Assembly: GCA_017649485.1 (NCBI GenBank)
Contig: JAGCGS010000033.1
Span: 1 to 43,585 of the forward strand
DNA length: 43,585 bases
DNA from: Bacteroidaceae bacterium
GTDB taxonomy: Bacteria > Bacteroidota > Bacteroidia > Bacteroidales > Bacteroidaceae
Direction: 5' to 3'
Positions 3,977 through 26,657 of the stretch are shown here, in pieces. The first letter of the stretch is position 1, and the number at the start of each line of letters is the position of its first letter. Both the position numbers and the translations under genes were made by a program. The notes beneath the pieces are model-generated. The model did no database searches, was not told the origin of the DNA, and was given only the letters and a program-made list of their open reading frames with translations.

Positions 3977-5722
3977 TCATAACGAAAGAATAAATTGATC
4001 CCAAGCTGATGTCCCTGTAGAATCATGCAGGATACTCAGACTTAATCTGCGACGAATGTTTGAAACTCCGCCTGCTGTAAGGTTCAATAAAGAAGCAATT
4101 TCAGAGGGGGATATATGACATTTAAGTAGTAAGCAAGTTCTATATTCTGATTTATTCAGTTCACCAATAGATTGTAATCTGTTGAGAAAATCTGGATAGA
4201 TGGCTGTAATACCATTTTCTATTTCTATCCATTCTTCTTCATGAATATAGTCTTCCTTTTTGACACGTTCACGAAGTATGTTACGGAATTGCGAAGTCTG
4301 CATGCTTAAATCAGCATCCTCTTTTAGGTGAAGCTTCATTTCAAGATTCTTGTTCTCATTCTCCAGAATCCTTTTCATCGCTTCCTTCTGACTATCATTT
4401 TTACCTTGCAAGCGCATTTGCTCCAATTCGGCTTCCAATGATACGATTTTTTTATTGTTGAGAGCCAACATCTCTGCACTCTCACGATATACCTTATCCT
4501 GCACCTGCTTCAAACGTTCCAAAGAGAGGTCTGCCTTTATTTGTCGATTTTTGTATCGCAGTATTAAGAATACGCTGATGGTAATGACAATTAGCAAGAC
4601 AATGGCTGCTGATAGCAACAATAGTTGGTTGCGATTAATCTTCTCTTCAAGCTCATAATTCTCTTTTTCACGGAGTTGGTAATTGTATAGAGAATTCATC
4701 TGTGCCATTACTTCAGTGGCATTCAACTCGTTGATTGAATCTTTCAACACTTCATATTGCAAGCTATAATCGATTGCAAGCTTGGGATTATTCCAATGTT
4801 GGAGGGCAATTTGGGCTAATCGTTCATAGGCTGTGCGTCTTGCATAAATGGTTCCTTTATCTAAGAGTTCGTTATAATAATAGGAAGCAGAGTCGATCTG
4901 TCCTGCTTTGAAATAAATGTCTCCAGCGATTGCATAGATACTACTAATATTAGATTGATCTAAATTTTCCAGCGAGGGAAGAATAAACTTCTTTGCAAGC
5001 TGAATACTATCAATCGTTATGTAGAGGCTTGCCATCTGGGAAGTTATAAGATTCTCCATTTTGGTGTCATGGATTATTAAAGCCAATTCATGAGCTCTTA
5101 AGAAATATTGCATTGTGCTATTGATTTGCCTTTTGCCCCAAAACATTACAGCAATGTCTCTCAAGTCGTATATAAGTCCTATGGTATCCTGCTGGATAGA
5201 GTCACATTGATATGCTGCACGATATGACTTCAAAGCTTCATTATATAATTTCTGATATCTGAACAGTTCCCCCATCTGAGCATACACCTTACTCTTCACC
5301 TTCAGGTTTTCATCGCCCGGCATCGCATCAAGAGCCTGCTGATAATAATCCAAGGCACGGGGAGCATCGCCCAGGTCACGGTAGGTACTGCCGGCATAAT
5401 AGTAAGCCTCGCCAAGATAGACTTTATCCCCACCATATTTATAATAGTCAACGAGCGAGAGGATAAGGCTGTCGGAGGTATGGGGGATGTAGGCTTTATC
5501 ATTGGCCTTGATGGTAAGCAGCCGGTATCGCATTTGCACATGCTCATCAGCCTGGGTCATGTCATCAGCTATGGACTTCAGCAATGAAACAGCACTGTCA
5601 GGATTGGCAACGCACAAGCTGTCAGCCGCCTGCAACACAGCAGGATACTGATAGCGGCGATGACAAGAGCACACACTCGCTAAACAAAACAAGAGTACTA
5701 TATAAATAAGATGACGTTTCAT
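3977..5722 (-). CDS. Membrane-anchored TPR regulator with C-terminal HTH, 581 aa
   Basis: One-component sensor/regulator typical of Bacteroidetes. The N-terminus is a signal sequence with a possible lipobox (SVCSC, Cys20). Residues about 30-350 form tetratricopeptide repeats (for example VYLGEAYYYAGSTYRDLGDAPRALDYYQQALD). A single membrane helix lies near 365-388 (LLLLSAAIVLLIVITISVFLIL), then a long coiled coil, then a helix-turn-helix-like C-terminus (residues about 515-560: YRTCLLLKCHISPSEIASLL...VSNIRRRL). Topology implies TPRs in the periplasm and the DNA-binding end in the cytoplasm. It shares this plan and much sequence with the gene at 11614-13288. It has its own promoter (5754-5785) and precedes a DUF3244-lipoprotein-TonB receptor unit that it probably controls. 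Confidence 0.85.
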   Translation of the reverse strand: MKRHLIYIVLLFCLASVCSCHRRYQYPAVLQAADSLCVANPDSAVSLLKSIADDMTQADEHVQMRYRLLTIKANDKAYIPHTSDSLILSLVDYYKYGGDKVYLGEAYYYAGSTYRDLGDAPRALDYYQQALDAMPGDENLKVKSKVYAQMGELFRYQKLYNEALKSYRAAYQCDSIQQDTIGLIYDLRDIAVMFWGKRQINSTMQYFLRAHELALIIHDTKMENLITSQMASLYITIDSIQLAKKFILPSLENLDQSNISSIYAIAGDIYFKAGQIDSASYYYNELLDKGTIYARRTAYERLAQIALQHWNNPKLAIDYSLQYEVLKDSINELNATEVMAQMNSLYNYQLREKENYELEEKINRNQLLLLSAAIVLLIVITISVFLILRYKNRQIKADLSLERLKQVQDKVYRESAEMLALNNKKIVSLEAELEQMRLQGKNDSQKEAMKRILENENKNLEMKLHLKEDADLSMQTSQFRNILRERVKKEDYIHEEEWIEIENGITAIYPDFLNRLQSIGELNKSEYRTCLLLKCHISPSEIASLLNLTAGGVSNIRRRLSLSILHDSTGTSAWDQFILSL

Positions 5723-6414: not shown

Positions 6415-6855
6415 TCAGTTCACCTTCTTAAAGATTCTATTCAACCTCACTTTGCCTTTGCTATCAACCGACTTCCAGATGCGCCAAACCCTGCCCACAA
6501 TATAGTCATCAGGCACCAAGCCCCAGAATCGGGAATCAATGGAGCTGACGGCATTGTCGCCTGCCATGAAATAATAATCGTGGGTAAAGGTATATTCCTG
6601 AATAACCTCCTCTCCCATCCTCACTACTCCTTGGTCATCAATCGCCAGTTTGCGTTTCTGCTCCCACTCCACCAACTGATGATACAGTTTCCAAGCAGTG
6701 CTGTCCATCCGCATTGTTTGTCCTCGCTTAGGGACAGGCAAGGGACCAAACTCCTTCAGCGTCCATCCCATGCCCTCGCCTGCTGATGCTTCAGGATAAA
6801 CAGGGTCAGGATACCTTGTCAGCATCATGCTGTCAGGCAGCACCATCAGCTCCAT
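6415..6855 (-). CDS. lepB: Signal peptidase I, C-terminal part (frameshifted from 6873-7343)
   Basis: Carries the last conserved box of type I signal peptidases: HDYYFMAGDNAVSSIDSRFWGLVPDDYIVGRVWRIW (GDN.x5-DSR..G.V pattern, about residues 92-127). It lacks the catalytic Ser and Lys, which are in the neighbouring frame upstream. The same frame is open upstream of the Met at 6855 through residues GEIGKRSRQ, and joins the N-terminal part in frame if one G is added to the run at 6879-6882. The joined protein would be about 309 residues, normal for Bacteroidetes SPase I. Whether the piece is translated by itself is doubtful. It lies upstream of the half-receiver regulator. Confidence 0.75.
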   Translation of the reverse strand: MELMVLPDSMMLTRYPDPVYPEASAGEGMGWTLKEFGPLPVPKRGQTMRMDSTAWKLYHQLVEWEQKRKLAIDDQGVVRMGEEVIQEYTFTHDYYFMAGDNAVSSIDSRFWGLVPDDYIVGRVWRIWKSVDSKGKVRLNRIFKKVN

Positions 6856-6872: not shown

Positions 6873-7343
6873 CTATTTCCCCTTCACACCAGCTATCTGA
6901 TACAATCCGTTCCTTATACTGATGGTATCACCAGGCAGTCCGATGCACCGCTTCGTATAGTATCTCATTACATGAAACCTTATGCTATCCAACCTGCCGT
7001 ACTCGTAGGGAAAGTTAAACACTACCACATCATTCCGCCTGATGCCCCTCAGTCCGGGCAGGCGATAAATCTCAATATCCTCTAACCGTGTGGCCTTGAA
7101 CACATTGAACAGCCTCGGTCCCATGCTGAGCTTCTCAACCAAAATAAAATCTCCCGGCATCATCTCAGGCACCATAGAATTGGTCGGCACCTTAAACGAC
7201 ACCAAGAGAAACACTTGCAGCAGCAGATACCCCACCACTGCCAGGCATCCATAGAACACTAAGTTCACCAGTATGTTGAGGCGTTTCTTCAAATTATTAT
7301 CATATCTCCCATTCAAAGAATGACAATAAAGAGGGATTTGCAA
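6873..7343 (-). CDS. lepB: Signal peptidase I, N-terminal part, ends early at a frameshift
   Basis: Type I (S26) signal peptidase that removes signal peptides on the periplasmic face. A membrane anchor (about residues 25-50) precedes the catalytic serine box PTNSMVPEMMPGD (Ser56) and the catalytic lysine box YYTKRCIGLPGDTI (Lys131). The frame stops at TAG 6875-6873, right after the run of four G (6879-6882 on the plus strand as CCCC), while the conserved C-terminal box continues in the other frame at 6415-6855. This piece alone would lack the final structural box and is probably inactive. It follows an NVEAL peptide gene by 38 nt, so a role in maturing those peptides is plausible, but a housekeeping lepB is expected elsewhere. 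Confidence 0.8.
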   Translation of the reverse strand: MQIPLYCHSLNGRYDNNLKKRLNILVNLVFYGCLAVVGYLLLQVFLLVSFKVPTNSMVPEMMPGDFILVEKLSMGPRLFNVFKATRLEDIEIYRLPGLRGIRRNDVVVFNFPYEYGRLDSIRFHVMRYYTKRCIGLPGDTISIRNGLYQIAGVKGK

Positions 7344-7381
7344 GCCCGTTTAAAAAGCAATTTCCATCTAAAATTTACCCA

Positions 7382-7618
7382 TTATTGATCTGCATAAACC
7401 AATACTCCTGGTACGCCAACACCATCAACAATTGTACATATATTAGTCGTGATTTGTGCACAAACGAAGTTGGCATTAACAGATTGTGCCAAAGCCTCCA
7501 CATTTGCCTGCGTCAAATCACCTACATTCGCTTCGCTCTTATTAGATCCAATCATATTGTAGCCAGCAGCAATCGCAATTGCAGACATGAGGGCTACGCT
7601 CATTAATTCTATTTTCAT
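7382..7618 (-). CDS. NVEAL-type small exported peptide (third copy), 78 aa
   Basis: Short precursor with a hydrophobic leader (ALMSAIAIAAGYNM, residues 9-22), a conserved middle (SNKSE...DLTQANVEALAQ, residues 25-45), and a variable tail of about 33 residues with two cysteines, Cys53 and Cys61 (C-x7-C). The NVEAL word identifies it with the Bacteroidetes NVEAL family of unknown function. The leader looks like a signal peptide with cleavage after AIAA or AAG. The first 45 nt of leader DNA at 7561-7605 are almost identical (one mismatch) to 10117-10161 in the first copy, pointing to recent duplication or gene conversion. Unlike the other two copies it is followed by signal peptidase, not a propeller lipoprotein. 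Confidence 0.85.
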   Translation of the reverse strand: MKIELMSVALMSAIAIAAGYNMIGSNKSEANVGDLTQANVEALAQSVNANFVCAQITTNICTIVDGVGVPGVLVYADQ

Positions 7619-7629
7619 AACACTATAAT

Positions 7630-8670
7630 TTAAAATTTATACTCTAATATACAACCTTCAGGGTCATATCCAATTCCATAAAGCAATCCTTCTTTTTCAT
7701 CAACACCAAAAGCGAACAGTTCTTTTTCCAATTCATAATGCGCGACAGGATTACCATCCCAGTCATAAACAAATACATGTGACCCATGCCATGCTTTATT
7801 TACATCATCTCCTACTATTTTACCGGCATAAAGTGTATAGACAAAGCTATCCGTACATTCTAATCCGACAAACCCTGTCCTACACTTCATGGAGACAGCT
7901 GTGGGTGAGTAATCACTTTTTGTCCTCACAAAAATGGGAGGGAAATAATTCAGCAAGATTCGCTCATTTATGCCCTTCTCATCACAATCATAGATAGCTA
8001 AGGCACATCCATTGTCTATTACAACTGCCAGTCTCGTCCCATCTGGCTTAAACCGATGTTGCCCACTTTTATAAGCATCAACCAACACAGACGTTTCCAT
8101 ATCTCTTGTCTCGGGAAAGTCCGGGAACCCATAGGAATCTATCTCTATACCATCTTTATAATATTTTATCCATGAATCACCCTTCCAACTTTTGGCTGCC
8201 ATATAACTACCATGAAAATCAGGCAGCGAAACAGCCTCAACGCCAATATCTTGAAAGTCTATTATGTAAAGAGCAGAATCGCTATCTTCCATGATAAGAT
8301 AACGCTTCATTGTATTAATCTCATAGACTGTCATTCCAGTCTTTTCCTTAATAAAGGATGTCGGGTATATTAATTCACCTGGCCCATTTCCATAATTAAC
8401 GCCTTGTCTAACCTGTAATGTACTCCTATCTATAATTTTAAAAATATTAGAGCGAGCATAATCAAACACAAAATAACGATGGCTATCCTTCTTAATAGAA
8501 AAAGGTCTATAAGTATCAAGACTCTCTAAATCTATCCTATTACTAATCTGTAAATTCTTGTGAGGCACTCTCCTAAAATGTGAGACAGGACTATTGTCTA
8601 CTTGCTTGGTTGGGCAAGCAGACAATAGCACAGAGAATAATCCAATCAACAATAGCCTTATACCTGTCAT
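7630..8670 (-). CDS. Six-bladed beta-propeller lipoprotein, 346 aa
   Basis: Start chosen at ATG 8670, which gives a compact signal peptide ending LLSAC (Cys19) and a 4-nt gap after the preceding peptide gene; the earlier Met at 8703 would add 11 polar residues and overlap that gene. The mature part contains repeated beta blades with the motif VNYGNGPGELIYPTSF, a hallmark of the BF3164-like / TolB-like propeller lipoproteins of Bacteroidetes. It is likely anchored to the outer membrane. Tight linkage to the NVEAL peptide upstream suggests it binds, displays or retains that peptide (inference). It is a paralogue of 8934-9956 (GDIGQGPGEISNLGS at the same place). A 15-bp hairpin sits across its lipobox codons. 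Confidence 0.85.
   Translation of the reverse strand: MTGIRLLLIGLFSVLLSACPTKQVDNSPVSHFRRVPHKNLQISNRIDLESLDTYRPFSIKKDSHRYFVFDYARSNIFKIIDRSTLQVRQGVNYGNGPGELIYPTSFIKEKTGMTVYEINTMKRYLIMEDSDSALYIIDFQDIGVEAVSLPDFHGSYMAAKSWKGDSWIKYYKDGIEIDSYGFPDFPETRDMETSVLVDAYKSGQHRFKPDGTRLAVVIDNGCALAIYDCDEKGINERILLNYFPPIFVRTKSDYSPTAVSMKCRTGFVGLECTDSFVYTLYAGKIVGDDVNKAWHGSHVFVYDWDGNPVAHYELEKELFAFGVDEKEGLLYGIGYDPEGCILEYKF
8591..8628 (-). repeat. 15-bp hairpin across the lipobox Cys codon of the propeller gene at 8670
   Basis: Plus-strand arms 8591-8605 (CTATTGTCTACTTGC) and 8614-8628 (GCAAGCAGACAATAG), loop 8 nt. In the minus-strand mRNA all 15 positions pair, one as G-U. It covers nt 43-80 of the coding sequence, with the Cys19 codon at the top of the 5' arm. 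No U-run follows, so it is not an intrinsic terminator. Confidence 0.8.
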
Positions 8671-8674
8671 AGAA

Positions 8675-8905
8675 TTATTGATATGGCTCTTCAAGCTTTT
8701 CACCTACTACAGTAATATCTGGTAAAACACATGGTTGATTCTTAGTGTTGGCACACCAAGGTCCGAAATCCACACTTTGTGCCAATGCCTCCACATTAGC
8801 CTGTGTCAATTCACTTACAATCATTTCGCTCTTATTAGAGCTTGTAATCATATAGCCAGCTGCGATAGCAGCTACGAGGGCTACGTTCATAAATACTTTC
8901 TTCAT
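8675..8905 (-). CDS. NVEAL-type small exported peptide (second copy), 76 aa
   Basis: Same plan as its two neighbours: hydrophobic leader (NVALVAAIAAGYMI), conserved SNKSE...ELTQANVEALAQS, then a tail with Cys51 and Cys59 (C-x7-C: CANTKNQPC) ending VVGEKLEEPYQ. The leader is less like the other two at DNA level, so it is the diverged copy. The propeller lipoprotein starts 4 nt after its stop, suggesting coupled translation. The mature product, if cut after the AIAAG region, would be about 58 residues; if cut after ALA (Ala42), 34 residues. Function is unknown; a secreted signal, surface peptide or modified peptide are all possible. Confidence 0.85.
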   Translation of the reverse strand: MKKVFMNVALVAAIAAGYMITSSNKSEMIVSELTQANVEALAQSVDFGPWCANTKNQPCVLPDITVVGEKLEEPYQ

Positions 8906-8933
8906 AATCCATTTCTTTTAAATGTTATTAAAT

Positions 8934-9956
8934 TCAGTCTAATATACCTTTCAAGTCCAGGTAGCCGAACTGCATTACCTCATCCGCAAAAGTGAAATAT
9001 ATTAATCCATTCTCCTCGTCAATAGTCAAGTGCCAGATATTTTTCCCGACATTAAACGTCATTAGATAATCACCATTCATGGAAAAAACGTGACATTGCT
9101 TAGCATATTGCTGCTTATCATAATCATAACCCGCATAAGCAGCGATAAACTTATCTTTATAGCACACGACATCGCCAAAATGCCTCTTGTTGTCACCATT
9201 CACACTCCATTGTGGACCTTTAATCCTGAATTTAAGATTCAAATCCTTGTCAAAAACATTGATAAGGTCATAATACCTGTTGCATTCAATAAGTATCTGA
9301 TTATCGACAGAATAGGCGCAACTCACTCTAAAAACCTTAAGACCCGCCAGCTCATGCTTATGAGTTATTACCTCACCTGTACTCATATTCCAGATGCCTG
9401 CCATTTGAGCCATAGTATTTCTCTCAAAGTTGGCATATCCGATAACTCCATAAGATAGCGTGTCAGTCAAGTATTGATAAGATACTGGAATAGTAGTGTT
9501 TTCAAATTTTACCCTAACATGAGGAGTATAATCAGCAACTACCATGATGCTGTCAATATCATAACTTAGCACTCTTGACCCGCCTAAATCTGTAACCAAC
9601 AGCAAGCCCTTTAAGGCATCTATCGCAACTGAACCTAAATTAGAAATCTCACCTGGACCTTGACCTATATCTCCCGCACTACCCACATAATCCCAAGTGT
9701 CTTTGTTAAACAAATGAATCATTTTGCCTACCGCCCTATGATCTTTGACTATTAAAAAATCGTCATGCACCTGCAAGTATGCGTGTGATGAGGACATGGG
9801 TAGCTCATCAGGATTAAACTCCCTGACCTGAAAGCTCAAATCAATTAGATTATTCCTTTTAGATTGAATAATCACTTCACCACTTTCGTTATGGTTGCCA
9901 CAGCCAACCATAACGAAAGCCAGAAAAAGAAAGCAAAATCTTATGTAGCCGGCCAT
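8934..9956 (-). CDS. Six-bladed beta-propeller lipoprotein, 340 aa
   Basis: Signal peptide ends MVGC (Cys19), a good lipobox. The body shows blade repeats including LFNKDTWDYVGSAGDIGQGPGEISNLG and VAIDALKGLLLVTDLGGSRVLSYD, matching the BF3164-like/TolB-like propeller lipoproteins. Its start overlaps the end of the NVEAL gene upstream by 16 nt, so translation is probably coupled. Only about half of the residues look shared with the propeller at 7630-8670, mostly the GxGPGE blade. Like that gene it carries a perfect 15-bp hairpin over the lipobox. A binding partner or receptor for the NVEAL peptide encoded with it is the simplest reading of the pairing, but nothing proves it. Confidence 0.85.
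   Translation of the reverse strand: MAGYIRFCFLFLAFVMVGCGNHNESGEVIIQSKRNNLIDLSFQVREFNPDELPMSSSHAYLQVHDDFLIVKDHRAVGKMIHLFNKDTWDYVGSAGDIGQGPGEISNLGSVAIDALKGLLLVTDLGGSRVLSYDIDSIMVVADYTPHVRVKFENTTIPVSYQYLTDTLSYGVIGYANFERNTMAQMAGIWNMSTGEVITHKHELAGLKVFRVSCAYSVDNQILIECNRYYDLINVFDKDLNLKFRIKGPQWSVNGDNKRHFGDVVCYKDKFIAAYAGYDYDKQQYAKQCHVFSMNGDYLMTFNVGKNIWHLTIDEENGLIYFTFADEVMQFGYLDLKGILD
9883..9919 (-). repeat. Perfect 15-bp hairpin across the lipobox Cys codon of the propeller gene at 9956
   Basis: Plus-strand arms 9883-9897 (CTTTCGTTATGGTTG) and 9905-9919 (CAACCATAACGAAAG), loop 7 nt (CCACAGC). In mRNA it covers nt 38-74 of the coding sequence, with the Cys19 codon in the loop. There is no U-run after it. 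The arms are unrelated in sequence to those of the hairpin at 8591-8628, but the position and stem length are the same. Confidence 0.9.
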
Positions 9957-10174
9957 ACTTTTTCCATATAATCTTCATGCCATCCATTACAGAAACAGCC
10001 TTCACCGCAATTAATTAAACACCCGTTAGGACACATTGGACTTGCAAGTGCTTCAACATTAGCAGATGTCAAGTCATTCACACTTACTTCGCTCTTTTCA
10101 GAGCTAATCATACTGTAGCCAGCAGCAATCGCAATTGCTGACATGAGGGCTACGCTCATTAAAAACTTCTTCAT
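9941..10174 (-). CDS. NVEAL-type small exported peptide (first copy), Cys-rich tail, 77 aa
   Basis: Leader ALMSAIAIAAGYSM, conserved SSEKSE...DLTSANVEALA, then a tail far richer in cysteine than the others: Cys48, 52, 56, 60 and 62, i.e. C-x3-C-x3-C-x3-C-x-C, followed by NGWHEDYMEKVWPAT. The first and third Cys keep the C-x7-C spacing of the other two copies. The tail could be cross-linked by disulfides or bind metal. It follows the DUF1573/thioredoxin-like lipoprotein by 29 nt and overlaps the propeller start by 16 nt. It belongs to the NVEAL family by its central motif; no function is known to me. Confidence 0.85.
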   Translation of the reverse strand: MKKFLMSVALMSAIAIAAGYSMISSEKSEVSVNDLTSANVEALASPMCPNGCLINCGEGCFCNGWHEDYMEKVWPAT

Positions 10175-10203
10175 AAATAATGCAATTTTAATGTTATTGA
10201 TAA

Positions 10204-11082
10204 TTATTCAACTCTACCACTGACAGATATACGCAGTGGAGATTGTTTTGCATTGCAATACAAAGTAACCGTCTTATGGAAGGCCCCCTTCTTGTCTGGG
10301 TCATAGCTTAACACTACCTCACCAGCCTCTCCTGGCATAATTGGTACCCTTGGGTATTCCACTTTGGTACATCCACAAGAAACTACCACATCTTGCACTA
10401 CCAAAGGCTTAGAGCCTGTGTTAGTAAGCTTCAGTTTTGTTTCCTGTTTATTGCCAATCTCAATCTCCCCAAAGTCAATGGTGTTTTGATCAATCGCAGC
10501 TTCAGTCAAAGATACTTGGGGCTTGCTCTCACCATCCTTGCCCAGGATAATGCTTTGGTAAAGCTCCAACACCTTGGGACTTTGAACAGGATTGCCGATG
10601 GCAAGCACTTTGTTATCCTTGTCCAAGAGCATGGTCTGGAAATTGAAATTAGCCGGAAAATGGTTCAGGGCATTAAACTCTCCTTGCAAATCCAACAAAA
10701 TCGGATAGTCAAAGCCTCCGCTCTTTGTAGCATACATTACATCCCGCAGTTTATCCGGAGAGAACACAAAGACAAAGGGAACACGAACAGCAGACACAGA
10801 GTCTATGCGATGAATGATGTTCTTCCACCTGTCCAACTGCAACTTGCAACTGACGCAACCTACTGAATCCACGTAACTCACCACTTTGTAGTCAGCCTCA
10901 CGGAAATTGAAATCAACCGTATCCTGCCCAAAGATAGTGAAAACTGGATTGTTTGGAAAAACGACTTCTTTCCCTTGCCATTCCCCTACAATTCTAACAG
11001 CGTCATTACTGCTTGAACTTTTACAAGAGGCAAGCATGCCCAATACCACCAATAATATCAGATGCCTCAGATTAAGCAGCAT
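10204..11082 (-). CDS. Thioredoxin-like / DUF1573 lipoprotein, 292 aa
   Basis: Start set at ATG 11082, giving a clean lipoprotein signal (GMLASC, Cys20) and a 10-nt gap after the DUF3244 gene; the longer frame would add 27 unlikely residues. Residues about 60-180 look like a thioredoxin-type fold with a CVSC active-site-like pair (Cys76, Cys79) in YVDSVGCVSCKLQLDRW, then FVFVFSP and YPILLDLQGEFN. Residues about 195-292 are DUF1573 (IDFGEIEIGNKQETKLKLTNTG...VSCGCTKVEYP...GRVE), an Ig-like ASPM/Hydin-type module. The two-domain layout is common in Bacteroidetes beside peptide clusters. It could act on the Cys pairs of the NVEAL peptides encoded next, as oxidase, reductase or isomerase; this is inference from neighbourhood. 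Confidence 0.85.
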   Translation of the reverse strand: MLLNLRHLILLVVLGMLASCKSSSSNDAVRIVGEWQGKEVVFPNNPVFTIFGQDTVDFNFREADYKVVSYVDSVGCVSCKLQLDRWKNIIHRIDSVSAVRVPFVFVFSPDKLRDVMYATKSGGFDYPILLDLQGEFNALNHFPANFNFQTMLLDKDNKVLAIGNPVQSPKVLELYQSIILGKDGESKPQVSLTEAAIDQNTIDFGEIEIGNKQETKLKLTNTGSKPLVVQDVVVSCGCTKVEYPRVPIMPGEAGEVVLSYDPDKKGAFHKTVTLYCNAKQSPLRISVSGRVE

Positions 11083-11092
11083 AATACTCCTA

Positions 11093-11449
11093 TCAGAATA
11101 AGCCATAGAGGCAGATACCATTGAAATATAGGCTGATGCTATATTTATCTTCATCCACTTCATCTGGCAACAATATAGGCTGCTGACCTATAAAACCTCC
11201 AAGCTGAACAGTATAGATCTCGTCCTCATTGCTGTCAGCTATCACCACTGTCATACCATCTATATAATATGGTGCAGTGATAGTTAGAACTCCAAGTTCG
11301 TATGAGGCAGTAGGGTAAAGGGCAGGGGCTTTGCTACCAGGGGTTCCGTTGCCACCGAAGTTCTTGGGTCTTCTATCCAGATCTATCTCATCTGCAACAG
11401 AAACCAAACTGAAACATGCGCAAATTAATAATAACAGTACCTTTTTCAT
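11093..11449 (-). CDS. DUF3244-type small secreted protein, 118 aa
   Basis: ATG at 11449 preferred over the GTG at 11455. The signal peptide ends near SVADE (about residue 20). The mature part begins with a Gly/Pro-rich stretch (DRRPKNFGGNGTPGSKAPA) and continues into the DUF3244 beta domain (YELGVLTITAPYYIDGMTVVIAD...YSISLYFNGICLYGLF). Clear paralogue of 3491-3847. It is the first gene of the NVEAL unit, preceded by a -7 box and four phased ATTTCAC repeats, and is followed by the DUF1573 lipoprotein at 10 nt. No function known. Confidence 0.8.
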   Translation of the reverse strand: MKKVLLLLICACFSLVSVADEIDLDRRPKNFGGNGTPGSKAPALYPTASYELGVLTITAPYYIDGMTVVIADSNEDEIYTVQLGGFIGQQPILLPDEVDEDKYSISLYFNGICLYGLF

Positions 11450-11483
11450 AATCACATAATCTTATTAGTTCATTTTGATGGAA

Positions 11484-11581
11484 CAAAGATAAGATATGCG
11501 CTAAAAGCTGGCTAAAAAACCATTTCACTTTTATTTCACTTTTATCTTAACAAGGTAGGGATAATTTCACTTAAATTTCAC
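11484..11581 (-). promoter_or_regulatory. Probable activator-dependent promoter with four ATTTCAC repeats
   Basis: Minus-strand -7 box TATCTTTG at 11491-11484 with no TTTG at the expected -33 place. Upstream, ATTTCAC (plus strand) occurs at 11522-11528, 11533-11539, 11564-11570 and 11575-11581: two pairs, each with 11-bp spacing, exactly 42 bp (about four helical turns) apart. Direct repeats at 11 bp are the usual site form of OmpR/PhoB winged-helix regulators; one such regulator is encoded at the end of this unit (5924-6367). The repeats would lie about 45-105 bp before the start of transcription. Confidence 0.65.
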
Positions 11582-11613
11582 CAAGCAGAATTACTACACT
11601 GATATACAATTGA

Positions 11614-13288
11614 TTAAATACCGTCAATGATTTTATCAAATTCTTCGGCTTTTCCTTCTTTTCCCACAACTTTTTTATAAAGTCTCTTACGGGAATTTGT
11701 TATAGTACTTTCCCTTCGGCTCAGCAAACTGGCTATATGTGAAGGACTGAACCCCATTTTCAACAACAGGCAGACTCTCAAATCTTGTGGCTTATTCACA
11801 CCTAATGTGTGCAAACGGGTTGTAAAGTCGGGGAATATATTATTAATCAGTTCCTCCACCTCTATCAGCTCTTTGTCTGAAATACCTTTACTCGTATTTA
11901 AGAGTCTCCCATAGATTGAAGATTCAAATATCGTTTGCTTTCTATTATCACTTTTAGACTGACGAAGTTGCTCCATCATATTATCATTGATTAGCCTATC
12001 ACGCTCTTGAAGCAAAGAATGCTTTTCACGTTCAGCTTCCTTTCTTCTCAACTGTTCCTCTTTCAGATACTGATCCAACAGGGCATTATTGTATTTCAAC
12101 CTATCTCTGTCTGAACGAATCCTGTTTCCATAGATTATGAGTACAGAGATAATCACCATAATGAACAATCCGATAATGATTACGAAATATGTATATTGCA
12201 TGTTCAGATGCTTCAGACGATCTTTTTCCTTCTCGAGTTTCTGGCTATTATACAAGCTATTGATGCGGGCAATCTGCCCGGAATCAGTGATAAGTGATAA
12301 CGAATCAGTCAGTTCCTTATATGGAACAAGATGTTTGATTATTTCATCTATGTTTCTATCATTTGCAGCCATGCTCAAAAGCATTGCTTCAGCCTGCTGA
12401 CGACTCCCTATTGAATGAGATCTTAACATCTGTTCATAATAAGGTCTTGCCAATTCATACTTATGTTGCCTAAAGAAGATATAACCAGCGATAGAATTAG
12501 CAATATCTTTATAGTCTTCGCCAACATTTTCCATCGATGATTTCATGAAATCTTCAGCCAAATCATAATTGTCCATATAATTATACGCCTCAGCTTTTCT
12601 AAGATTAGCATAACTCTGTAAGCTCTTATCCCCCATCTGTGACGCTAAATCAAATGCCTTATCATAATATTTTAGACTGGTTTCATACTCTTCCATTTCC
12701 ATATAGCAATAGCCTAAATCACTTAGTGCAGCAAACATGCCCAATGAATCTGAAATAACATCTGCATATTGATAAAAACTCTCAAGATCTTTTAAAGCCA
12801 TATCATACAGAGCCTGTGATCTGAAGATTTCACCTCTTTGTGAATGAATTTTGCTTAGTAAATAGCTGTCGCCTTCATCTGCCACATCAAGGGCTTTATT
12901 GAAATACTCTAAAGCGCGCTGGGCATCATACAAAGAAACATAGGTTCTGCCAGCATAGTAATACGCCTCTGGCAATGTGCCTTTATCGCCCTCTTCTTCA
13001 TAGTAGTCAATGACAGCGATAATCATACTGTCAGTTACAAGAGGCTTGTTAATCTTGTCTTCTGCTTTAATCTTTTGCAGCTCAAACCTCATCCTGGCAT
13101 CATGACTTTCCTGAAGCATAAAGCTGTCTATGGCAACCAACGCATTAAATGCCGCCCAGTAGTTGCCGGCATCAAGCAAACTATCAATATAGTTGAGTGC
13201 CACGTTAGGACTATTATAGAAAACACCCCCTACACCCTGACAAACAGAGCGTTATCATCAGAATCAGTATGTATTGTATTTGGCTCAT
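11614..13288 (-). CDS. Membrane-anchored TPR regulator with C-terminal HTH, frameshift near the start
   Basis: Paralogue of 3977-5722: periplasmic TPRs (LPEAYYYAGRTYVSLYDAQRALEYFNKALD and more), one membrane helix about 160-180 residues from the C-terminus side of the TPRs (YFVIIIGLFIMVIISVLIIYG), a long coiled coil, and an HTH-like end (LRVCLLLKMGFSPSHIASLLSRRESTITNSRKRL). The main frame runs 13203-11614 from a GTG and lacks a signal sequence. A lipoprotein signal (MSQIQYILILMITLCLSGCRG) starts at ATG 13288 in another frame and stops at 13214. Removing one G from the five-G run at 13226-13230 joins them as ...SGCRG-VFYNSPNVALNYID, giving about 558 residues. So either a disrupted gene or a sequence error. 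It probably controls the unit starting at 11449. Confidence 0.8.
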
Positions 13289-26613: not shown

Positions 26614-26657
26614 AGCATAGAAGCTGGTCACTTTATTTAGTGGCCAGCTTCTATGCT
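26614..26657 (+). terminator. Long stem-loop after the carboxylesterase gene
   Basis: 19-bp stem, AGCATAGAAGCTGGTCACT pairing with AGTGGCCAGCTTCTATGCT (one G-U), loop 6 nt. There is no long U-run, so it could act by Rho-independent pausing or protect the 3' end of the mRNA. Confidence 0.7.

What the first reader, a model, noticed from the sequence alone, without database searches (positions are those of the whole stretch)
8591..9919. Two unrelated 15-bp hairpins at the same codon position in both propeller genes
At 9883-9919 (perfect) and 8591-8628 (one G-U), stems of 15 bp with 7-8 nt loops cover nt 38-74 and 43-80 of the two propeller coding sequences, with the lipobox Cys19 codon at or beside the loop. 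The arms differ in sequence but pair equally, as expected for a selected RNA structure. The null is that T-rich signal-peptide codons followed by A-rich codons favour some pairing; weaker 5-bp hairpins do occur at other lipoboxes here, but 15 bp twice is far beyond that. Since peptide and propeller genes have no space between them, the hairpin may protect the 3' end of the peptide mRNA, lower propeller translation, or pause ribosomes at lipoprotein targeting.
Basis: seen in the sequence. Interest (0 to 1): 0.82.

Follow-up and report, generated by a model that had tools for sequence, protein, structure and literature searches.

The report
RNA hairpins between peptide and propeller genes
Two strong RNA hairpins at the start of two lipoprotein genes belong to a structure that many Bacteroidales bacteria keep, without keeping its sequence, between a small peptide gene and the lipoprotein gene after it, where it probably sets how much peptide is made relative to lipoprotein.

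Summary
Both 15-bp stems exist at the stated coordinates (-21.7 kcal/mol each; 0 of 200 shuffles as good). Random synonymous codons reach them in 6 and 1 of 5000 trials.

Where 40-165 nt separate them, the gap folds with z < -2 in 132 of 148 junctions, against 23 of 88 other same-strand gaps in the first-set loci. Stem sequences are mostly unrelated between junctions. G-U exceeds A-C at imperfect positions, 91 to 10, so selection acts on the sense RNA. One orthologous trio shows compensatory changes.

Without a gap, as here, the stem is usually absent or lies inside the lipoprotein gene; nine of the ten strongest in-gene stems centre within 6 nt of the lipobox Cys codon.

Few have a U-rich tail (3 of 111, or 7 by a looser pattern), so most are not intrinsic terminators. 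Best reading: decay-blocking hairpins favouring peptide mRNA over lipoprotein mRNA. No expression data were available.

The parts
9883..9919 (-). Hairpin 1: perfect 15-bp stem, 7-nt loop, inside propeller 1 coding sequence (nt 38-74), 21 nt after the stop codon of NVEALA 1, centred on the lipobox Cys codon (9902-9900)
8591..8628 (-). Hairpin 2: 15-bp stem with one G-U, 8-nt loop, inside propeller 2 coding sequence (nt 43-80), 46 nt after the stop codon of NVEALA 2, centred 5.5 nt from the Cys codon (8616-8614)
9941..10174 (-). NVEALA 1, 77-aa peptide precursor (PF14055), overlaps the propeller 1 start by 16 nt
8934..9956 (-). Propeller 1, lipoprotein, DUF5128 6-bladed beta-propeller (PF17170)
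8675..8905 (-). NVEALA 2, 76-aa peptide precursor (PF14055), 4 nt before propeller 2
7630..8670 (-). Propeller 2, lipoprotein, TolB_like 6-blade propeller (PF15869); ATG at 8670
7382..7618 (-). NVEALA 3, 78 aa (PF14055); no lipoprotein follows and no comparable hairpin follows (z -0.7)
10204..11082 (-). DUF1573 lipoprotein (PF07610), upstream gene of the same-strand run; start codon chosen by eye

Best explanation
Each hairpin is a selected RNA element of the polycistronic mRNA at the boundary between an NVEALA peptide gene and the lipoprotein gene after it. Shown here: position, sense-strand RNA selection, conservation of structure without sequence, and no terminator tail in most. Inferred: the genes share one mRNA; after an endonuclease cut in the poorly protected downstream lipoprotein mRNA, 3'-to-5' exonucleases stop at the stem; the upstream peptide mRNA survives longer, so more peptide than lipoprotein is made from one transcript. 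The stem normally fits between the terminating ribosome (median 11 nt after the stop) and the initiating ribosome (median 17 nt before the ATG). Where genes overlap or abut, as in both pairs here, a stem can only be built inside the lipoprotein coding sequence. It is then found where protein constraint is probably weakest: variable signal-peptide codons form one arm, linker codons after the Cys form the other, and the unchangeable Cys codon lies at or near the loop.
For: Gapped junctions have z < -2 in 57 of 65 (first set; other gaps in the same loci 9 of 39 and 14 of 49), 55 of 60 (loci L110-L188) and 21 of 24 (third set), 132 of 148 in all; 106 of 118 after clustering similar gaps in the first 124. 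Contiguous stem score >= 28 within 150 nt of the stop: 26 of 129 NVEALA genes, 1 of 1290 shuffles, 17 of 347 other genes. G-U to A-C at imperfect stem positions is 91:10, against 31:19 in shuffles. Compensatory changes: 4 of 17 pairs in the trio L189/L190/L191. Tails: 3 of 111 have >= 6 T in the next 8 nt, 7 of 111 match a looser U-run pattern; distances from stop and ATG. In-CDS stems of score >= 28: 9 of 65 when the gap is < 40 nt, 0 of 118 when gapped, 2 of 197 without NVEALA; 9 of 10 such stems in the larger set centred within 6 nt of the Cys codon. Precedent with the same anatomy: in E. coli, hairpins without a uridine tract protect the upstream gene, 17 of 26 of them inside the downstream coding sequence (PMC5927463, passages).
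Against: No RNA abundance, half-life or 3'-end data for any NVEALA operon were seen. Most gapless junctions (54 of 89) have z >= -2, so the stem is not indispensable. In the window's own genome 2 of 8 NVEALA-lipoprotein junctions lack it. The closest homologue of propeller 1 in another genome (L081, 44%) has no long stem (best 8 bp; z -2.6). NVEALA genes not followed by a lipoprotein also show some structure in the next 120 nt: z < -2 in 15 of 29 followed by another NVEALA and in 25 of 46 others, so the structure is not confined to peptide-lipoprotein boundaries; this would fit 3'-end protection of peptide mRNA but also weakens specificity. A stem inside a translated region would be opened by each ribosome. 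Other same-strand gaps show structure at lower frequency (23 of 88) and the same G-U bias on few counts (15:1).
Confidence: 0.58

Rival explanations
1. Translational insulator: the stem separates translation termination on the peptide gene from initiation on the lipoprotein gene, lowering or uncoupling lipoprotein translation.
For: The stem lies between the two genes at short, regular distances (median 11 and 17 nt). Junctions with overlapping, abutting or close genes (gap < 40 nt) less often have structure (35 of 89 with z < -2, against 132 of 148 gapped).
Against: The stem does not cover the start region in most gapped cases, and the ten in-CDS stems of score >= 28 begin at nt 25-60 after the ATG. 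The window's first pair overlaps (coupling expected) and still has the stem.
Confidence: 0.2
2. RNase III or other double-strand-specific processing site that cuts the polycistronic mRNA into separate peptide and lipoprotein mRNAs.
For: Stems are long (median 19 bp, middle half 15-23, small bulges allowed) and not fixed in sequence, as a double-strand-specific enzyme would allow.
Against: About a quarter have 15 bp or fewer, below what E. coli RNase III favours (recalled). No cleavage data.
Confidence: 0.12
3. Partial transcription terminator or attenuator after the peptide gene.
For: Hairpin after the peptide gene, which would also favour peptide over lipoprotein. 7 of 111 have a U-run-like pattern near the stem end.
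Against: Only 3 of 111 have >= 6 T in the next 8 nt; the terminator scan lists neither window hairpin; the window stems are followed by ordinary codons. Rho-dependent stops were not tested.
Confidence: 0.06
4. Codon-level pause that helps lipoprotein targeting or modification, tied to the lipobox Cys.
For: Nine of ten strong in-CDS stems centre within 6 nt of the Cys codon.
Against: Lipoproteins without NVEALA rarely have it (2 of 197 with stem score >= 28) and gapped ones carry none at the Cys (0 of 118 with score >= 24). At codon 19 the nascent chain has not left the ribosome tunnel (established knowledge). Protein constraint explains the register.
Confidence: 0.03
5. DNA-level palindrome (cruciform, recombination or repeat-insertion site), or chance pairing from T-rich signal-peptide codons followed by A-rich codons.
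For: A perfect inverted repeat is also a DNA palindrome. Permuted codons of the same stretch reach the stem score in 25 and 27 of 1000.
Against: Strong G-U over A-C bias; little shared sequence between stems; random synonymous codons and other lipoboxes rarely match it.
Confidence: 0.01

Closest known systems
Protective hairpins of differential operon decay in E. coli (Dar and Sorek 2018, PMC5927463; passages seen)
   Different: Those were defined by RNA half-life and Term-seq, which are missing here. Here structure is kept across genera with little sequence in common, and most in-CDS copies are registered on a lipobox codon.
malE-malF and puf intercistronic stem-loops (named in passages and reference list of PMC5927463; originals recalled)
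   Same: Stem between an abundant upstream product and scarcer downstream products of one operon; puf also has very small upstream proteins (recalled).
   Different: malE uses a repeated REP sequence (recalled); here nearly every stem has its own sequence.
Selective RNA processing and stabilization in the C. cellulolyticum cip-cel operon (PMC4423207; abstract and outline seen)
   Different: A clostridial operon with mapped processing sites; here none are mapped, and the junction type recurs in many paralogous gene pairs.
Leader-peptide and bacteriocin operons with a hairpin after the precursor gene (recalled)
   Same: Small secreted peptide first, hairpin, then larger genes at lower level.
   Different: Those are usually read as partial terminators with a U-tract (recalled); a U-tract is missing in most cases here.

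Membership tests
Protective hairpin of differential operon decay | Stable hairpin at the 3' boundary of the upstream gene, within the gap or early in the downstream gene | tested here: met
Protective hairpin of differential operon decay | No uridine tract after the hairpin | tested here: met
   3 of 111 with >= 6 T in 8 nt, 7 of 111 with a looser U-run pattern; window tails have none
Protective hairpin of differential operon decay | Structure conserved in relatives | tested here: met
   132 of 148 gapped junctions, but only 35 of 89 gapless ones
Protective hairpin of differential operon decay | Steady-state transcript 3' ends just downstream of the hairpin | not testable with these tools
   no RNA data held
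Protective hairpin of differential operon decay | Upstream segment more stable and more abundant than downstream segment | not testable with these tools
   no RNA data held
Protective hairpin of differential operon decay | No Rho-dependent termination at the site | not tested
   no RNA data held
Intrinsic terminator | Stem followed by a U-run | tested here: not met
   not met for both window stems; among gapped stems 3 of 111 have >= 6 T of 8 and 7 of 111 match a looser pattern
REP or other repeated palindromic element | Shared sequence between copies | tested here: not met
   118 clusters among 124 gaps
Known Rfam RNA family | Match to a covariance model | tested here: not met
   0 matches at E <= 1 in window 7000-12000
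RBS-sequestering hairpin | Stem covers the ribosome binding region or start codon | tested here: not met
   median 17 nt before the ATG, but 7 nt or less in a tenth of 111; the ten in-CDS stems of score >= 28 begin at nt 25-60. Three further stems overlap the assigned ATG (L047, L152, L131), probably because the start codon was assigned too early (inference)
Lipoprotein-targeting pause element | Present at the lipobox of lipoproteins generally | tested here: not met
   2 of 197 without NVEALA, stem score >= 28

The most novel reading that the evidence does not exclude
A structure-only RNA element, defined by place and pairing but not by sequence, is re-invented at NVEALA-lipoprotein junctions across Bacteroidales. 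When the intergenic gap is lost it can move into the signal-peptide and linker codons, so that RNA pairing dictates part of a lipoprotein's amino-acid sequence. Sequence diversity between modules of one array may itself be selected, so that stems of neighbouring modules do not cross-pair (this last point was not tested).
Probability: 0.35. Interest if true: 0.72.

Novelty: new variant of a known kind. Interest (0 to 1): 0.57.

Why it matters
NVEALA peptides are a family for which I found no described function: 'NVEALA', and 'NVEAL' with 'Bacteroides', returned 0 papers in the held open-access library. A near-universal hairpin in gapped peptide-lipoprotein junctions suggests that the two products are meant to be made in different amounts from one transcript, and that the unit is peptide plus lipoprotein. 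It gives a direct test of how Bacteroidales tune ratios within operons, and a clear case of RNA structure written through a lipobox.

Tried and rejected
Lipobox-specific function: rejected as the main reading, because the stem sits in the gap when there is one. Intrinsic terminator: rejected for most. DNA palindrome or repeat element: rejected. Known RNA family: none in window 7000-12000. The first NVEALA profile was built partly from wrongly oriented loci, was discarded, and was rebuilt. The first count of in-CDS stems had copies of the window among the controls and is replaced. The genome-contig scan with propeller 2 found no relative. Close orthologues of the window's propeller 1 were not found among 158 genomes of the genus (best 44% over its length in another genome), so covariation at the window's own stems could not be tested directly. 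The close pair L111/L115 shows changes on one side only, some of which break pairs.

Limits: start codons of lipoproteins were assigned by rule (first ATG giving a lipobox), and a few are probably too early (L047, L065, L131, L152). z-scores rest on 40 shuffles each. Folding stretches differ: the gap itself when >= 40 nt (cut at 150 or 170 nt), 120 nt after the stop otherwise. Controls for z (88 gaps) come from the window and L040-L079 only. Junctions were deduplicated on the first 100 nt after the stop, but the second set (L110-L188) and the first partly come from the same species or assemblies under different names, so the sets are not independent samples of species. NVEALA genes cut by contig ends or with less than 150 nt downstream were dropped. 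Only junctions with a lipobox-bearing next gene enter the 60, 124, 148 and 89 counts; the first-set count of 65 did not demand the lipobox. Some records bear titles outside Bacteroidales (for example Clostridiaceae, Bacillales); I take these for misbinned contigs but did not test it.

Full report
What is in the window. On the minus strand lie, in order, a DUF1573 lipoprotein gene (10204-11082), NVEALA 1 (9941-10174), propeller 1 (8934-9956), NVEALA 2 (8675-8905), propeller 2 (7630-8670) and NVEALA 3 (7382-7618). NVEALA 1 overlaps propeller 1 by 16 nt, and NVEALA 2 ends 4 nt before propeller 2. Random synonymous codons with local usage reach the same stem score in 6 of 5000 and 1 of 5000 trials, and the same MFE in 7 and 10 of 1000; permuting the codons already present reaches the stem score in 25 and 27 of 1000. 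That is less extreme than the shuffles, because the amino-acid sequence and codon set already allow much of the pairing.

Where the element really belongs. NVEALA (PF14055) was found in 80 of 149 genomes of the genus, and in 5 of 395 genomes drawn over the phylum (these include the window's own genome and one of its genus). I fetched arrays from the genus and 67 loci from named records of Bacteroides, Phocaeicola, Parabacteroides, Tannerellaceae and others. A first scan showed strong stems mostly 45-90 nt before the lipoprotein ATG, in the gap after the NVEALA stop. A contiguous stem of score >= 28 lies within 150 nt of the stop in 26 of 129 NVEALA genes, in 1 of 1290 shuffles and in 17 of 347 other genes of the same loci. 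Folding each gap of 40-165 nt against its own shuffles gave z < -2 in 57 of 65 in the first set (median -4.4). Control gaps in the same loci gave 9 of 39 (next gene NVEALA) and 14 of 49 (other gene pairs), with medians of -0.3 and -0.35. Loci L110-L188 gave 55 of 60 and a third set 21 of 24, so 132 of 148 in all. After clustering similar gaps, 106 of 118 clusters of the first 124 pass. In the 111 of 124 that pass, the main helix has a median of 19 bp, begins a median of 11 nt after the stop and ends a median of 17 nt before the ATG. NVEALA genes that are not followed by a lipoprotein also show structure in the next 120 nt, at lower frequency: 15 of 29 when another NVEALA follows and 25 of 46 otherwise.

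RNA, sense strand. Stems were found with a scoring that gives no credit to G-T or A-C. At the imperfect positions 91 were G-T and 10 A-C; shuffles gave 31 and 19 (first set alone 54 and 5). Base composition (counts) predicts a ratio of only about 1.4. A DNA palindrome would not show this. Control gaps show the same direction on few counts (15 and 1). In one orthologous trio at about 70% protein identity (L189, L190, L191), 98% of cells pair and 4 of 17 pairs have changes on both sides. Sliding the 3' partners by 1-3 columns gives 33-55% of cells paired and at most one such pair; 14 of 500 shuffles reach the observed covariation score. This is a small sample. Another close pair, L111/L115, shows one-sided changes only.

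What happens without a gap. In 89 junctions with a gap under 40 nt, 35 have z < -2 and 10 have a stem of score >= 28 inside the lipoprotein coding sequence; three more such stems straddle the assigned ATG. Nine of the ten are centred within 6 nt of the Cys codon middle base; the tenth (L139) is 33.5 nt away. Two are the window's own stems; others are in the same genome (L060, L061) and in other genomes (L051, L082, L083, L107, L174). The five weaker in-CDS stems (score 24-28) are 13.5 to 56.5 nt off the Cys. Stem score >= 28 around the Cys occurs in 9 of 65 gapless, 0 of 118 gapped and 2 of 197 NVEALA-free lipoprotein genes. So the lipobox register is real but conditional. The simplest cause is protein constraint: signal-peptide and post-Cys linker codons can vary, the Cys codon cannot, so it ends up at or near the loop (inference). 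Of the 9 NVEALA genes found in the window's genome (82.6% complete), 8 precede a lipoprotein and 6 of those 8 junctions carry a stem.

Mechanism. The stem mostly leaves the stop and the start free, mostly lacks a U-tract, and the window region matches no Rfam family. This anatomy matches hairpins that protect an upstream gene from 3'-to-5' decay in E. coli operons; those lack a uridine tract, and 17 of 26 lie inside the downstream coding sequence (PMC5927463, passages). [quoted passage not shown] cellulolyticum (PMC4423207, abstract). I therefore favour differential stability giving peptide in excess over lipoprotein. That step is inferred: no expression data were at hand, and the passages I saw of a B. 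thetaiotaomicron transcriptome paper (PMC10994844) say nothing on these operons. Rivals are a translational insulator and a double-strand-specific processing site.

Novelty. The kind is known, the instance appears not to be: searches for NVEALA and NVEAL returned nothing, and searches on propeller lipoproteins and RNA decay in Bacteroides listed no paper whose title or abstract start concerns these operons; from those three listings I opened only PMC5927463 and PMC4423207. The held library lacks most subscription papers. New are the near-universal conservation of structure without sequence at one type of gene junction, and the lipobox-registered copies.

Noticed in passing
window 6415-6855 and 6873-7343 (-): A signal peptidase S26 gene downstream of NVEALA 3 reads as two open frames, each matching a different part of PF10502; possibly a broken gene or a sequencing error.
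   Followed up: partly
window 7382-7618 (-): NVEALA 3 has no lipoprotein after it and no hairpin after it, unlike the other two.
   Followed up: partly
window 26614-26657 (+): A 19-bp hairpin with a 6-nt loop and no U-tail, unexplained.
   Followed up: no
L160:1572 (+) and L063:1131 (+): Two lipoprotein genes without a detected NVEALA gene upstream also carry a long stem at the lipobox (12 and 20 bp). The L063 gene resembles by eye the 291-aa lipoprotein gene of L051, which does follow an NVEALA gene.
   Followed up: partly
window 3977-5722 and 11614-13203 (-): Two TPR proteins flank the peptide-propeller run (one search finds only the TPR part); by eye each has a membrane segment and a C-terminal region that could bind DNA.
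   Followed up: no
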